From the NCBI GenBank assembly GCA_945877255.1, contig CAMCRE010000012.1, forward strand, positions 1-47,852: a DNA stretch of 47,852 bases. The letters are read 5' to 3'. Positions 16,639-46,770 of the stretch are shown here, one piece after another (the stretch's first letter is position 1; every line of letters begins with the position of its first letter). Source of the DNA: an uncultured Erysipelotrichaceae bacterium (lineage in GTDB: Bacteria > Bacillota_I > Bacilli_A > Erysipelotrichales > Erysipelotrichaceae). The notes under the pieces are model-generated. The model worked only from the letters and a program-made list of their open reading frames with translations. It ran no database searches and was not told the DNA's origin. The translations under genes and the position numbers were made by a program.

Positions 16639-18024
16639 TTACTCTGGTAAAATCTCTTCTTTATCAAACTCCAACAATGTTTTATTTTGAGATTTTAAAT
16701 AAATCACTCTACTAACTGTTGCAACCACAAACGTAATAAACGCTGGAACTAACCATGGTAATCCTTCTTTAGCTAACGGCAACATATTAATCGCTGCTAC
16801 TAAAAAATTATTTTTTGTGAAGATAAGTTTCAATAAAGGAACCATTGGCAACGTTGATATCGTAGACACAATTAAAGTTACATAAACTACAGATTTATAA
16901 ATAACAACATCTTTCCCGATCCATTTTTGAACTAAAACTAAGCAAATCAACACTAATGCTGGCGGATATAAAATTAATAATACCGGAATAGAATACTCTA
17001 AAATTTTTGATAACCCATAATTCGCTAAAACATAAGAAACAATCGTTATCGCAATTAAGTATTGATTGTAACTAATTTTATTGTATAAATCATGGAAAAA
17101 CTTCGAACAAGATATTAATAACGCTACAACAACACTAAAACATGCAATACTAAATATTACAGGTATAAATACTAATCCAATATCACCTAATAAATAGTAA
17201 CTAACATTTCTTAAAATTGCAGCCCCATTTGACGGATTTGGGAATAAATTAACACTCATCGCTCCTAAATGCGCACTCATTAAATAAATCACACCAAGCA
17301 ATAAACATGCACACATACCTGTTAAAATCGTTAATTTAATTGTTTTTTCTTCTTTTAAATTAAACTGCTTAAAAATAACTAATATTACTGTACCATATGT
17401 AATTGCAGCTGTAACATCTAATGTTTCATAACCATCTAAAAACCCTCTAACAACTGGATTAGCACTGTATATCTGTGCTGGCACTTGATAATCACCCATC
17501 GGTTTAAACAACGACGCCACAAATAATGTAACAATTAATCCAATTAAAATAGGCGACATAATTTTTCCTAAACGTTGTACTAATTTATTCGGATTTTTCG
17601 CAAAATAAAATGCCGCAATAAAGAAAACAGTTGTAACACCCCCCAGTAACAAGTGATAATGTAAACTTCCTTTTTGAACAGTGTCACTAATTAACGGATA
17701 AATCGTCATCTCAAATGGTACACTCGCATTTCGTGGAATCGCTAATAAAGGTCCAATCGCTAATAAAATAAATGTAATAAAAAATACAGCAAAGCGTGGA
17801 CTAACTCTTTCACATAAATTTCTTAATCCTTTACTTTTTGAAACAGCCACAACACCTAAAATCGGGAAAATCGCAGCACTAATAAAAAACGGAATAAACA
17901 CTAATAATAAGTTCGTTCCTGAATTCGCCCCTAACATTGGTGGAAATATTAAATTTCCTGCACCAAAAAACATCGAAAATAATGTTAATGAGATGTAAAT
18001 AAAATCTTTTTTTGTAAAATTCAT
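16639..18024 (-). CDS. brnQ: Branched-chain amino acid transporter, BrnQ/LIVCS family
   Basis: This 461-residue, about 12-helix cation symporter takes up leucine, isoleucine and valine. The N-terminal MNFTKKDFIYISLTLFSMFF followed by GAGNLIFPPMLG is the family signature, and PLLAIPRNASVPFEM is also typical. I start at ATG 18024 because CAGGAG lies seven bases upstream and the family begins here; a longer frame would run through the promoter. It is monocistronic and converges on the hysA operon. I see no T-box or obvious CodY box. Confidence 0.92.
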   Translation of the reverse strand: MNFTKKDFIYISLTLFSMFFGAGNLIFPPMLGANSGTNLLLVFIPFFISAAIFPILGVVAVSKSKGLRNLCERVSPRFAVFFITFILLAIGPLLAIPRNASVPFEMTIYPLISDTVQKGSLHYHLLLGGVTTVFFIAAFYFAKNPNKLVQRLGKIMSPILIGLIVTLFVASLFKPMGDYQVPAQIYSANPVVRGFLDGYETLDVTAAITYGTVILVIFKQFNLKEEKTIKLTILTGMCACLLLGVIYLMSAHLGAMSVNLFPNPSNGAAILRNVSYYLLGDIGLVFIPVIFSIACFSVVVALLISCSKFFHDLYNKISYNQYLIAITIVSYVLANYGLSKILEYSIPVLLILYPPALVLICLVLVQKWIGKDVVIYKSVVYVTLIVSTISTLPMVPLLKLIFTKNNFLVAAINMLPLAKEGLPWLVPAFITFVVATVSRVIYLKSQNKTLLEFDKEEILPE

Positions 18025-18078: not shown

Positions 18079-18134
18079 GTATAATCATCTGTGATTTTTT
18101 TGAGTGCTTAATTCTTCGTTTTTAAGCATATTAC

Positions 18135-18161
18135 TTTACTATATATATATATATATATAAT
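18135..18161 (+). promoter_or_regulatory. Promoter with a (TA)10 spacer ahead of the femX pair
   Basis: TTTACT (18135-18140) is a fair -35 and TATAAT (18156-18161) a consensus -10. Between them is little but the TA tract, with a spacer of 15 bp at ten repeats. The SD AAAGGA follows at 18175-18180. Loss or gain of TA units changes the spacing in 2-bp steps, as in known phase-variable promoters. Confidence 0.6.
18140..18159. repeat. Dinucleotide microsatellite (TA)10
   Basis: Twenty bases of uninterrupted TA lie directly in the promoter region of the femX-like genes. It is the only long dinucleotide tract I noticed in the window. Such tracts change length by slipped-strand mispairing. Confidence 0.9.
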
Positions 18162-18187
18162 TGGTTTGTATTCGAAAGGAAATTAAC

Positions 18188-18658
18188 ATGCTTAAACTTA
18201 TTGATATCACAAACCAAAACATTAATTTATCACACATGAATAAAAATAAACTTCTATCATCACTAGAATTTAATAACTTTTTAATGCAAAAAGGAACTAA
18301 AGTATTATGCTTTGGTCTTTATAACGATTCTCAACTTATTGACTATATCCATGTTGTTGTTTATCCAGTTAAAAAAATATTTAAGATTGGTGTTATACAC
18401 TATATGACCACAAACTTCATTCAAAGTTTGAATATAATACATAAACAACTAAAACAACTATTAAAAAAATATAAAATTATTCATTTATATATGACTACCG
18501 AAGAATATGCAGCAACTTATGACATTGAATCTGAAACAACTATAATAAACCCACCATTTGAAATTATTGACAAAATACTACAACAACACAACTTCATAAA
18601 AACTAATCCAAAACACGGTGCTGTAAAAGATATTTTATGGCAATATAAAAAAGATTTA
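18188..18658 (+). repeat. Direct repeat, copy A (471 bp, 5' part of femX copy 1)
   Basis: From the ATG to 18658 the sequence appears identical, silent sites included, to 19368-19838. Identity begins exactly at the start codon and stops abruptly inside the gene. By eye I found no mismatch. Confidence 0.9.
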
Positions 18659-19348
18659 ACTAACTTTAAAACAGAAGAAGATTTATTAGCTTCTTATTCG
18701 TCTACACGTCGAAAAGAAATCGCTAGAGCTAAAAAATTAGGTTGTAATATCGTTGAATTAAACTACAACCAGTTGCATCGCTTTATTAGTTTATACAATG
18801 AAACTGCAAAAAAACATCACACTGTTCAATATGATATTGATTATATCCAAAATTTATATCACGCTTTTAACCCCACCAACAAAATTACAGTTGCTGTATG
18901 TGAAATGGATATTCAAACATGTTTAAATTACTTAAATGATTTAAAAACAAAACTCGCAAAAGAAGGGACATTTCAAAATAAACTCGATAAAATACAAGCA
19001 CAAACTAATAAATTGTCGAATATGCTAAAAAAACAAAAAACTATCGATCTTTCAAGTGGTGTTTGTTTTCAAGAAAAAGACGAATATATTATTTTTATCA
19101 GCGGTAATAGTGAGGAATTTTCTGATTATTACGGATGCAGTTTCTTGCAACATTCCATGATAAAGAAAGCTCTGGATTTAAACTTACCATATTTTAATTT
19201 TTATGGCACACCAGGAACATATGGAGATTACACAAACCAAGGATATGGTGTATATGAATTTAAAAAAGCTTTTAGAGGCTTCCCAATACAATACCCTCAC
19301 TATTCATACGCACTAAATAAATTTTTGAGCAAAATATTTAAATTATAA
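18188..19348 (+). CDS. FemABX-family peptidoglycan bridge aminoacyltransferase, copy 1
   Basis: This 386-residue tRNA-dependent ligase should add an amino acid to the lipid II stem peptide in the cytoplasm. It has the FemABX double GNAT-like layout: domain 1 about 1-160, domain 2 from about 165 (SYSSTRRKEIARAKKLG), a two-helix coiled-coil insert about 248-285 (LNDLKTKLAKEGTFQ onward) and the closing FNFYGTPGTYGDYTNQGYGVYEFKKAF motif split across domain 2. I start at ATG 18188 (AAAGGA seven bases upstream). Residues 1-157 are identical to copy 2. Which amino acid is added, and at which bridge position, cannot be read; tandem pairs often act sequentially. Confidence 0.88.
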   Translation: MLKLIDITNQNINLSHMNKNKLLSSLEFNNFLMQKGTKVLCFGLYNDSQLIDYIHVVVYPVKKIFKIGVIHYMTTNFIQSLNIIHKQLKQLLKKYKIIHLYMTTEEYAATYDIESETTIINPPFEIIDKILQQHNFIKTNPKHGAVKDILWQYKKDLTNFKTEEDLLASYSSTRRKEIARAKKLGCNIVELNYNQLHRFISLYNETAKKHHTVQYDIDYIQNLYHAFNPTNKITVAVCEMDIQTCLNYLNDLKTKLAKEGTFQNKLDKIQAQTNKLSNMLKKQKTIDLSSGVCFQEKDEYIIFISGNSEEFSDYYGCSFLQHSMIKKALDLNLPYFNFYGTPGTYGDYTNQGYGVYEFKKAFRGFPIQYPHYSYALNKFLSKIFKL

Positions 19349-19367
19349 ATATATTACGGAGAATATC

Positions 19368-19838
19368 ATGCTTAAACTTATTGATATCACAAACCAAAAC
19401 ATTAATTTATCACACATGAATAAAAATAAACTTCTATCATCACTAGAATTTAATAACTTTTTAATGCAAAAAGGAACTAAAGTATTATGCTTTGGTCTTT
19501 ATAACGATTCTCAACTTATTGACTATATCCATGTTGTTGTTTATCCAGTTAAAAAAATATTTAAGATTGGTGTTATACACTATATGACCACAAACTTCAT
19601 TCAAAGTTTGAATATAATACATAAACAACTAAAACAACTATTAAAAAAATATAAAATTATTCATTTATATATGACTACCGAAGAATATGCAGCAACTTAT
19701 GACATTGAATCTGAAACAACTATAATAAACCCACCATTTGAAATTATTGACAAAATACTACAACAACACAACTTCATAAAAACTAATCCAAAACACGGTG
19801 CTGTAAAAGATATTTTATGGCAATATAAAAAAGATTTA
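19368..19838 (+). repeat. Direct repeat, copy B (471 bp, 5' part of femX copy 2)
   Basis: This is the partner of 18188-18658, offset 1180 bp. Recombination between the copies would delete one gene's worth of DNA and leave a single hybrid gene with the copy 2 C-terminal half. Confidence 0.9.
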
Positions 19839-20531
19839 TCTAATTTTAAAACAGAAGAAGATCTATTAACTTCTTATTCTTCTTCGTATAGAAATAAAAT
19901 ATCAAAAGCAAAAAGATTTGGTTGTAAAATTGTTGAATTAGAGTACAATCATCTAGAACGTGTACTTAAGTTGTATACTGAATCAGCAAGAAAGCATAAT
20001 TTCCCTCAATTCACAACTGACTTTATAAAAAATCTACATAATGCTTTTCAACCATCGAATAAAATAACACTTGCAATATGTGAAATGGATATACAAACTT
20101 GTCTAGATTATTTAAACAATTTAAAAACGAAACTTGAAAAAGATTCTTTAAACAAGCAACTAGAACTAGAAAAACTACAAAAAAATATCATTAAATTACA
20201 AAATGCAGCAAAAACTCAAAAAACAATAGATCTTTCAAGCGGAATTTTTATCCAAGAAAAAAATGAATATATTTTTTTCATAGGTGGCAATAGTACAGAA
20301 TTTTCAAATTACTGTGGTTCACATTTTTTACAACACGCTATGATGCTAAAAACTTTAGATCTAAAGTTGCCGTGGTATAATTTTTACGGAACACCTGGAC
20401 CGTATGATGATTATTCCCATATAGGAAATGGCATATATGAATTTAAAAAATTATTTAAAGGCATTCCTATTAAACACCCACACTATTCATACGCACTAAA
20501 TAGATTTTTAAGTAAAATATTTAAACTATAA
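19368..20531 (+). CDS. FemABX-family peptidoglycan bridge aminoacyltransferase, copy 2
   Basis: This 387-residue paralogue follows copy 1 by 19 bp, with its own SD (CGGAG). Residues 1-157 are identical to copy 1; after that identity falls sharply (for example SYSSSYRNKISKAKRFG against SYSSTRRKEIARAKKLG), although the order of elements is the same: coiled-coil insert about 248-286 and C-terminal FYGTPGPYDDYSHIGNGIYEF. Divergence in the second domain and coiled coil suggests a different amino acid, tRNA or bridge position. The conserved first half is best explained by gene conversion. It is probably co-transcribed with copy 1. Confidence 0.88.
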   Translation: MLKLIDITNQNINLSHMNKNKLLSSLEFNNFLMQKGTKVLCFGLYNDSQLIDYIHVVVYPVKKIFKIGVIHYMTTNFIQSLNIIHKQLKQLLKKYKIIHLYMTTEEYAATYDIESETTIINPPFEIIDKILQQHNFIKTNPKHGAVKDILWQYKKDLSNFKTEEDLLTSYSSSYRNKISKAKRFGCKIVELEYNHLERVLKLYTESARKHNFPQFTTDFIKNLHNAFQPSNKITLAICEMDIQTCLDYLNNLKTKLEKDSLNKQLELEKLQKNIIKLQNAAKTQKTIDLSSGIFIQEKNEYIFFIGGNSTEFSNYCGSHFLQHAMMLKTLDLKLPWYNFYGTPGPYDDYSHIGNGIYEFKKLFKGIPIKHPHYSYALNRFLSKIFKL

Positions 20532-20534
20532 ACA

Positions 20535-20566
20535 AAAACATTACATCATCAGCGATGTAATGTTTT
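20535..20566. terminator. Terminator after the femX pair
   Basis: AAAACATTACATC (20535-20547) pairs with GATGTAATGTTTT (20554-20566) over a 6-nt loop. The symmetrical A/T flanks can serve both the femX genes and the converging HAD gene. Confidence 0.85.
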
Positions 20567-45229: not shown

Positions 45230-45742
45230 CTACTTAAACTTATCTTGATAAATCAAATTAAATAACCATTGTAAATTGATAAGTGGTTCTGATTGTGTAT
45301 TGACTATCGGAGATAATAACTTATCTATTTTTGCGATAATTTCTTCTTTGTTCACTTTTGAAATGTCGATACTTTTATATTCATTAAAATCAAAAGCATG
45401 TAATAACCTGAAGTTTTTATTAAAGGCATAGGAAGTGTCTTTCCCATCTGAATAAATATACTCTGTTTCTTCGTCATATGAATTTCCAAATGTTTCATAA
45501 TTGTTTGTGTACTTCATCACAACTTTTGTTCCATCAATTTTATACTCTATCCCATCAATATCTGGTTTAATAATTGAATCTAAATTTTCAATCAACATTA
45601 TCCATTCAGGATGTTGCCCTTCTCCTCTTGGCATATTCTTTGCATAATATACAGAATTTGTTTTTAAATTTTCAATAACTAAAAACAATAAAATTAGACT
45701 TATACCTAAAAATATTAGTATTCTTTTGAATATTCTTTTCAT
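45230..45742 (-). CDS. Small membrane-anchored protein, tandem paralogue 1 (possible immunity protein)
   Basis: The 170-residue protein has a basic start and one hydrophobic helix (about 8-24) and then faces outward. A conserved motif follows (NSVYYAKNMPRGEGQHPE) and the C-terminus is NLQWLFNLIYQDKFK. It is almost identical to paralogue 3 (46255-46770) and more distant from paralogue 2. SD AAGGTAAG is seven bases ahead. No family recognised. Tandem multiplication behind a large basic membrane protein suggests immunity function, by inference only. Confidence 0.65.
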   Translation of the reverse strand: MKRIFKRILIFLGISLILLFLVIENLKTNSVYYAKNMPRGEGQHPEWIMLIENLDSIIKPDIDGIEYKIDGTKVVMKYTNNYETFGNSYDEETEYIYSDGKDTSYAFNKNFRLLHAFDFNEYKSIDISKVNKEEIIAKIDKLLSPIVNTQSEPLINLQWLFNLIYQDKFK

Positions 45743-45755
45743 TTCTTACCTTCTT

Positions 45756-46241
45756 TTATTTAAATTGATCTTGGTAAATCAAATTAAATAACCATTGTAA
45801 GTTGATAAGCGGTTTCTTTTGGTTATCAATAATTGGTTGTAATAATTTTCTTATATTAAACATTACTGTTTTTTCTTCGTTAAAGTCTACTTTATAACTC
45901 CTTAAAATAGACATCTCAGTTGCATCAATAATATTAAGATTCTTATTTAATAAGTACGAAATACCATTATCTGCAAAAATAAATTCTGTATCACCACTAG
46001 TACTTATTATTAAATTTTGCCTATTTGTTATACTAACGTTTCCATCAAAATCAAAACTTAAATCATTAGTATCAGAAATATATAGATATTTTAAATTAAT
46101 TATCGCCATAACTAACTCAGGATGTTGTCCTGCTCCTCTTGGCATATTCTTTGCATAATATACAGAATTTGCTTTTATATTATAATAAACTAAAAACACT
46201 GCAATTATAATAATCCATATTCTTGTTAATATTTTTCTCAT
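45756..46241 (-). CDS. Small membrane-anchored protein, tandem paralogue 2
   Basis: This 161-residue relative of the flanking genes has an N-terminal helix (about 5-20), the shared block NSVYYAKNMPRGAGQHPE and C-terminus NLQWLFNLIYQDQFK. The middle differs strongly (SDTNDLSFDFDGNVSITNR, ISTSGDTEFIFADNG) while keeping the same arrangement of Tyr/Phe-rich strands. It uses the same type of SD (AAGGTAAG). The variable middle with conserved ends is what one expects of proteins recognising different variants of a partner. Confidence 0.65.
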   Translation of the reverse strand: MRKILTRIWIIIIAVFLVYYNIKANSVYYAKNMPRGAGQHPELVMAIINLKYLYISDTNDLSFDFDGNVSITNRQNLIISTSGDTEFIFADNGISYLLNKNLNIIDATEMSILRSYKVDFNEEKTVMFNIRKLLQPIIDNQKKPLINLQWLFNLIYQDQFK

Positions 46242-46254
46242 TTCTTACCTTCTG

Positions 46255-46770
46255 TTATTTAAATTCATCTTGATAAATCAAATTAAATAACCATTGTAAA
46301 TTGATGATAAGCGGTTCTGATTGTGTATTGACTATCGGAGATAATAACTTATCTATTTTTGCGATAATTTCTTCTTTGTTCACTTTTGAAATGTCGATAC
46401 TTTTATATTCATTAAAATCAAAAGCATGTAATAACCTGAAGTTTTTATTAAAGGCATAGGAAGTGTCTTTCCCATCTGAATAAATATACTCTGTTTCTTC
46501 GTCATATGAATTTCCAAATGTTTCATAATTGTTTGTGTACTTCATCACAACTTTTGTTCCATCAATTTTATACTCTATCCCATCAATATCTGGTTTAATA
46601 ATTGAATCTAAATTTTCAATCAACATTATCCATTCAGGATGTTGCCCTTCTCCTCTTGGCATATTCTTTGCATAATATACAGAATTTGTTTTTAAATTTT
46701 CAATAACTAAAAACAATAAAATTAGACTTATACCTAAAAATATTAGTATTCTTTTGAATATTCTTTTCAT
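46255..46770 (-). CDS. Small membrane-anchored protein, tandem paralogue 3
   Basis: This 171-residue protein is nearly identical to paralogue 1, differing by one inserted codon near the 3' end (SEPLIINLQW against SEPLINLQW), a DEFK/DKFK change and silent differences. Its start has GGAGA eight bases upstream, overlapping the stop of the preceding large gene, so the two are translationally coupled. The 3' part around AAGCGG matches paralogue 2 rather than paralogue 1, a trace of mosaic exchange. Confidence 0.65.
   Translation of the reverse strand: MKRIFKRILIFLGISLILLFLVIENLKTNSVYYAKNMPRGEGQHPEWIMLIENLDSIIKPDIDGIEYKIDGTKVVMKYTNNYETFGNSYDEETEYIYSDGKDTSYAFNKNFRLLHAFDFNEYKSIDISKVNKEEIIAKIDKLLSPIVNTQSEPLIINLQWLFNLIYQDEFK

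What the first reader, a model, noticed from the sequence alone, without database searches (positions are those of the whole stretch)
18135..18161. (TA)10 tract as spacer of the femX promoter: probable phase variation
An uninterrupted 20-base TA tract lies exactly between a fair -35 (TTTACT) and a consensus -10 (TATAAT). At ten repeats the spacer is 15 bp; one more unit gives the optimal 17 bp. The downstream genes modify peptidoglycan cross-bridges, so tract slippage could switch wall cross-linking, lysin sensitivity and beta-lactam response. Dinucleotide spacer switches are known elsewhere (H. influenzae hif); I know of none for FemABX genes.
Basis: partly seen in the sequence, partly recalled or inferred. 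Interest (0 to 1): 0.72.

Follow-up and report, generated by a model that had tools for sequence, protein, structure and literature searches.

The report
TA repeat inside femX operon promoter
A run of ten TA units, far longer than chance allows, sits in the likely promoter of the only two wall-bridge (FemABX) genes of a small Erysipelotrichales bacterium, whose other long TA runs mostly lie in front of surface-protein genes, so repeat slippage could tune its cell wall as it tunes Haemophilus fimbriae, but no length variation could be checked here.

Summary
The (TA)10 tract is real (18140-18159). It overlaps TTTACT (18135-18140) and supplies the first four bases of a perfect TATAAT (18156-18161): a 15-bp spacer, 26 bp before the femX1 start. 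Tracts of at least 9 units are expected less than 0.001 times in this 1.26-Mb genome, yet it has five. The other four stand before a GA/FIVAR adhesin, a YSIRK-DUF1542 protein, a small surface protein and an exported esterase-like protein. Across the order Erysipelotrichales, long TA tracts carry TATAAT at the end facing the downstream gene far more often than at the other end (15 of 29 versus 2 of 29; 13 discordant, all one way). The -10 side of the promoter reading is thus well supported; the -35 is no better than random flanks. femX1 and femX2 are the genome's only FemAB genes. Phase variation itself is untested: no second strain or reads were available, MutS and MutL are intact, and femAB depletion is lethal in S. 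aureus, so graded tuning is likelier than hard OFF. Best reading: a hif-type promoter-spacer contingency locus on a peptidoglycan-bridge operon, a new member of a known kind, about 50% confidence.

The parts
18140..18159 (+). (TA)10 tract, 15 of its 20 bases form the putative promoter spacer
   Evidence: expected far below one per genome
18135..18140 (+). candidate -35, TTTACT (4 of 6)
   Evidence: no better than control flanks
18156..18161 (+). -10, TATAAT (6 of 6), first four bases belong to the TA tract
   Evidence: strand-asymmetric TATAAT at TA tracts across the order
18175..18180 (+). Shine-Dalgarno AAAGGA of femX1
   Evidence: sequence
18188..19348 (+). femX1, FemAB family protein of 386 aa
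   Evidence: PF02388 E 2.1e-36; closest solved relatives are S. aureus FemX and FemA at low similarity; no NCBIfam equivalog reached its cut-off
19368..20531 (+). femX2, FemAB family protein of 387 aa, 19 bp after femX1
   Evidence: PF02388 E 3.1e-35; only these two FemAB genes in the assembly
20535..20566 (+). stem-loop, probable operon end
   Evidence: a terminator-like match only
16639..18024 (-). brnQ, divergent branched-chain amino acid transporter
   Evidence: PF05525
18049..18078 (-). brnQ promoter TTGATT-18-TATAAT, independent of the tract
18080..18085 (+). second TATAAT in the gap, no usable -35; rival start site

Best explanation
The (TA)10 tract is the -10-proximal part of the sole promoter of the femX1-femX2 operon. 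It belongs to a set of five long TA tracts that this genome keeps at gene starts, mostly of surface proteins. Slipped-strand gain or loss of a unit would change the -35/-10 spacing by 2 bp (13, 15, 17 or 19 bp for 9, 10, 11 or 12 units) and so shift transcription of all FemABX activity of the cell up or down, more as graded tuning than as a hard ON/OFF. Shown: the tract and its excess over chance; its place next to the TATAAT; the operon; that these are the only FemAB genes found; the sibling tracts; the strand asymmetry across the order. Inferred: TTTACT as -35, slippage in nature, effect on expression, effect on the wall.
For: Five tracts of at least 9 units where <0.001 is expected; 214 of 245 family genomes have none. 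All eight tracts of at least 6 units are intergenic and upstream of a gene, unlike three of four 5-unit tracts. Neighbours are surface or exported proteins. TATAAT abuts the gene-facing end in 15 of 29 assignable tracts and the other end in 2; 13 discordant all one way, p = 2e-4. No + strand promoter with 16-18 bp spacing in the gap reaches 9 of 12; the best candidate spans the tract. A duplicated leader (C17/C3) is identical over 142 bp but has tracts of 22 and 14 nt. Precedent: hif (TA)9-11 (PMC2651432; PMC7911514).
Against: No repeat-number variation could be observed. The -35 is not better than control flanks. MutS and MutL are intact. 76 FemAB relatives have no long TA run upstream, so the tract is not conserved at femX. 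femAB loss is lethal in S. aureus (PMC6428869), so a full OFF state may not be tolerated. At C13 the tract is against the Shine-Dalgarno and at C2 it is 227 bp from the gene, so the siblings do not share one layout.
Confidence: 0.5

Rival explanations
1. Neutral microsatellite: the TATA of a -10 element seeds slippage, so tracts grow next to promoters in AT-rich intergenic DNA, and their length has no selected effect on expression.
For: TA tracts abut -10 elements across the order whatever the gene; the tract is absent upstream of other FemAB genes; the -35 side is no better than chance; tracts of up to 34 nt exist, too long for any spacer.
Against: Tracts in this genome cluster at surface-protein genes and at similar lengths (18-22 nt), and most relatives have none.
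Confidence: 0.25
2. Structural role: the tract is an easily melted, flexible stretch that makes a constitutive promoter work, kept for composition and not for switching.
For: Strand-specific placement at the -10; intact mismatch repair; need for steady FemABX supply by analogy with S. aureus (PMC6428869).
Against: Composition alone would not require a perfect uninterrupted dinucleotide repeat; most promoters of the window lack one.
Confidence: 0.15
3. The start site is elsewhere: an upstream promoter (TATAAT at 18080) drives femX and the tract lies in the 5' untranslated region, acting, if at all, on mRNA folding as may happen at the C13 locus.
For: A second TATAAT exists. On C13, TTGACA-17-TACAAT lies about 100 bp upstream and the tract touches GGAGG.
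Against: At 14-20 bp before 18080 no hexamer matches TTGACA in more than 2 of 6 positions. At femX the tract is 15 bp before the Shine-Dalgarno, not against it.
Confidence: 0.1

Closest known systems
H. influenzae hifA/hifB fimbrial promoter, (TA)9-11 (van Ham et al. 1993, as cited in PMC2651432 and PMC7911514)
   Same: Uninterrupted TA tract of about ten units, part of the spacer between -35 and -10, in a gap between divergent genes; each unit shifts the spacing by 2 bp.
   Different: There both divergent genes are controlled and variation is shown; here brnQ has its own promoter, the target is a cytoplasmic wall enzyme operon, and variation is unseen.
Mycoplasma iowae synthase gene with a poly(TA) stretch (PMC11658790)
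   Same: Low-GC relative in the wide sense; TA number differs between two published genome versions and is proposed to cause phase variation.
   Different: The tract is described at the 5' end of the gene, not in a promoter spacer; the organism has no wall.
S. aureus ica promoter TATTT repeat (PMC7911514) and pneumococcal murMN operon (PMC4483231)
   Same: The first is a promoter repeat switch in a low-GC Gram-positive. The second is an operon of two FemABX enzymes whose level changes wall branching.
   Different: The ica repeat acts on regulator binding; no repeat switch of a FemABX operon was found in the papers searched.

Membership tests
Simple-sequence-repeat promoter-spacer phase variation (hif type) | uninterrupted short-unit repeat far longer than chance | tested here: met
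   (TA)10, expectation below 1e-4 per genome
Simple-sequence-repeat promoter-spacer phase variation (hif type) | repeat directly upstream of a -10 element on the gene's strand | tested here: met
   TATAAT at 18156-18161; asymmetry 13:0 across the order
Simple-sequence-repeat promoter-spacer phase variation (hif type) | -35 element at the other end of the repeat | tested here: inconclusive
   TTTACT is 4/6; flanks not significantly better than controls
Simple-sequence-repeat promoter-spacer phase variation (hif type) | repeat number varies within or between strains | not testable with these tools
   no other genome of the genus held, no reads
Simple-sequence-repeat promoter-spacer phase variation (hif type) | expression changes with repeat number | not testable with these tools
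   needs reporter or RNA data
FemABX aminoacyltransferases (PF02388) | sequence match over nearly the whole family profile | tested here: met
   profile positions 13-384 of 406 and 13-381 of 406
FemABX aminoacyltransferases (PF02388) | membership in a named equivalog such as FemX | tested here: not met
   NCBIfam matches far below cut-off; so 'femX' is a label for the family only
FemABX aminoacyltransferases (PF02388) | aminoacyl transfer to lipid II / cross-bridge synthesis | not testable with these tools
   no muropeptide or enzyme data

The most novel reading that the evidence does not exclude
This bacterium keeps a set of TA-tract contingency loci (adhesins, YSIRK surface protein, exported enzyme) that also includes its whole FemABX capacity, so cells of one clone differ heritably and reversibly in peptidoglycan cross-bridge content, alongside surface proteins, despite intact mismatch repair.
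Probability: 0.3. Interest if true: 0.72.

Novelty: new member of a known kind. Interest (0 to 1): 0.5.

Why it matters
If true, cell-wall cross-bridge synthesis would be a bet-hedged, reversible trait. That bears on lysis by phage and host enzymes, on cell-wall antibiotics, and on presentation of wall-bound surface proteins. It would extend dinucleotide promoter switching to a walled low-GC Gram-positive order for which the papers searched gave no example. The strand-asymmetric link of TA tracts to -10 elements gives a simple way to list further candidate loci.

Tried and rejected
Strain comparison failed: no other genome in the genus, no flank match in viral contigs, no FemX relative there. 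A table scoring the promoters at other repeat counts had an error in how the tract was cut out; it is disregarded and was not repeated, and only spacer arithmetic is used. A mismatch-repair defect as the source of instability was rejected: MutS1 and MutL are full length. The idea that the tract also drives brnQ, as in hif, was rejected: brnQ has its own 10/12 promoter about 60 bp away. Conservation of the tract at other FemAB genes was rejected. The LPXTG profile PF00746 was tried for counting anchored proteins and found only two weak hits, so the surface-gene enrichment was not given a formal p-value. Asymmetry beyond the order: the few extra class-level tracts gave no clear signal.

Full report
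Observation. The tract is as described: (TA)10 at 18140-18159, TTTACT at 18135-18140 and TATAAT at 18156-18161, with 15 bases between the hexamers. The tract overlaps both hexamers rather than lying between them. An AAAGGA Shine-Dalgarno follows, and the ATG of femX1 (18188) lies 26 bp after the -10. Under Markov models of order 1 to 5 fitted to 129 kb of the same genome (30% GC), tracts of at least 9 units are expected 4e-4 to 9e-4 times in 1.258 Mb and tracts of at least 10 units 4e-5 to 9e-5 times.

Surroundings. femX1 and femX2 (PF02388, 126 and 122 bits) are tandem and 19 bp apart. A stem-loop follows at 20535-20566. brnQ is divergent (ATG at 18024) and has its own promoter TTGATT-18-TATAAT. 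A search of the whole assembly (98% complete) with the FemAB profile found only these two genes. In the 163-bp gap no + strand promoter with 16-18 bp spacing reaches 9 of 12. The best candidate is TTTACT-15-TATAAT; a second TATAAT at 18080 has no usable -35.

The tract is one of a set. The genome has five places with at least 9 TA units. The other four lie before a GA/FIVAR giant surface protein (C2, 227 bp), an exported esterase-like protein (C6, about 50 bp), a YSIRK-DUF1542 surface protein (C13, directly against the Shine-Dalgarno) and a small surface protein with an anchor-like C-terminal end (C17, about 70 bp). Shorter tracts of 6-8 units lie before a paralog of the C17 gene (C3), a 168-aa protein (C11) and the gene after recA (C8). 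All eight are intergenic and upstream of a gene, whereas three of the four tracts of only 5 units are inside reading frames. Of 245 family genomes, 214 have no tract of 9 units, and most of the others show one place; base composition was not controlled. In the wider class the pattern recurs mainly in a few very small genomes.

Link to the -10. For 48 long TA tracts, nearly all from the order, 29 could be assigned to a gene on one side only. TATAAT touches the tract end facing the gene in 15 and the opposite end in 2; all 13 discordant cases point the same way (p = 2e-4). Two of the 13 (C3 and C17) are paralogs, so 12 are independent. femX itself was set aside as two-sided and would add another case. 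This supports the promoter reading of the femX tract. The -35 side has no such support: 71% of flanks hold a match of at least 4/6 against 53% of controls.

Variation. No second strain is held, so repeat-number variation, the core of the claim, could not be tested. The nearest thing is the C17/C3 pair: leader and gene start are identical over 142 bp, but the tracts are 22 and 14 nt. The sequences upstream of the tract differ too, so this is suggestive only. MutS and MutL are intact, which argues for modest slippage rates. 76 more distant FemAB genes (mostly 21-32% identity) have no TA run above 8 nt upstream.

Mechanism. Most likely each gain or loss of a unit moves the spacing in 2-bp steps (13, 15, 17, 19 for 9 to 12 units) and tunes the operon, as in hif, where TA10 to TA9 has a large effect and TA10 to TA11 a moderate one (PMC7911514; PMC2651432). 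Because these are the only FemAB genes, and femAB depletion is lethal in S. aureus (PMC6428869) while pneumococcal murMN can be deleted (PMC4483231), graded change is likelier than a full OFF. Whether these proteins build a cross-bridge here is inferred from the family; the nearest solved relatives are S. aureus FemX and FemA at low similarity.

Known or new. The mechanism would be of the hif kind. The papers searched gave no case for a FemABX operon or for this order; subscription literature was not covered. I file it as a probable new member of a known kind, not as proven phase variation.

Noticed in passing
window 18188-18658 and 19368-19838: femX1 and femX2 share a perfect 471-bp direct repeat from the ATG, 1180 bp apart, then diverge to about 70%: recent gene conversion or duplication, and a possible site of recombination that would fuse the two genes.
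   Followed up: partly
L020 4041-5073 (C17) and L133, minus strand (C3): Two copies of a small surface-protein gene share an identical leader and gene start and then diverge; the C3 copy is interrupted by a frameshift, and the identity begins inside the TA tract.
   Followed up: partly
L137 162-3276 (C13): The YSIRK-DUF1542 surface-protein gene behind the (TA)9 tract has an in-frame stop at codon 849, after which the same repeat frame continues.
   Followed up: no
L019 4031-4060 (C13): The (TA)9 tract touches the GGAGG Shine-Dalgarno, with a TTGACA-17-TACAAT promoter about 100 bp upstream, so any effect there would be on translation rather than promoter spacing.
   Followed up: no
L020 2049-2552 and 3022-3525 (C17): Two identical copies of a 167-aa exported protein gene lie 973 bp apart in tandem, each followed by a similar 96-aa gene.
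   Followed up: no
window 45230-46770: Three adjacent genes of 161-171 aa with the same 11-base repeat at regular spacing look like tandem paralogs.
   Followed up: no
L162-L168: Some 0.7-1.3 Mb genomes of the class hold several long TA tracts, some upstream of lipoprotein-like or cytosine-methyltransferase-like genes whose frames are longer under code 4.
   Followed up: partly
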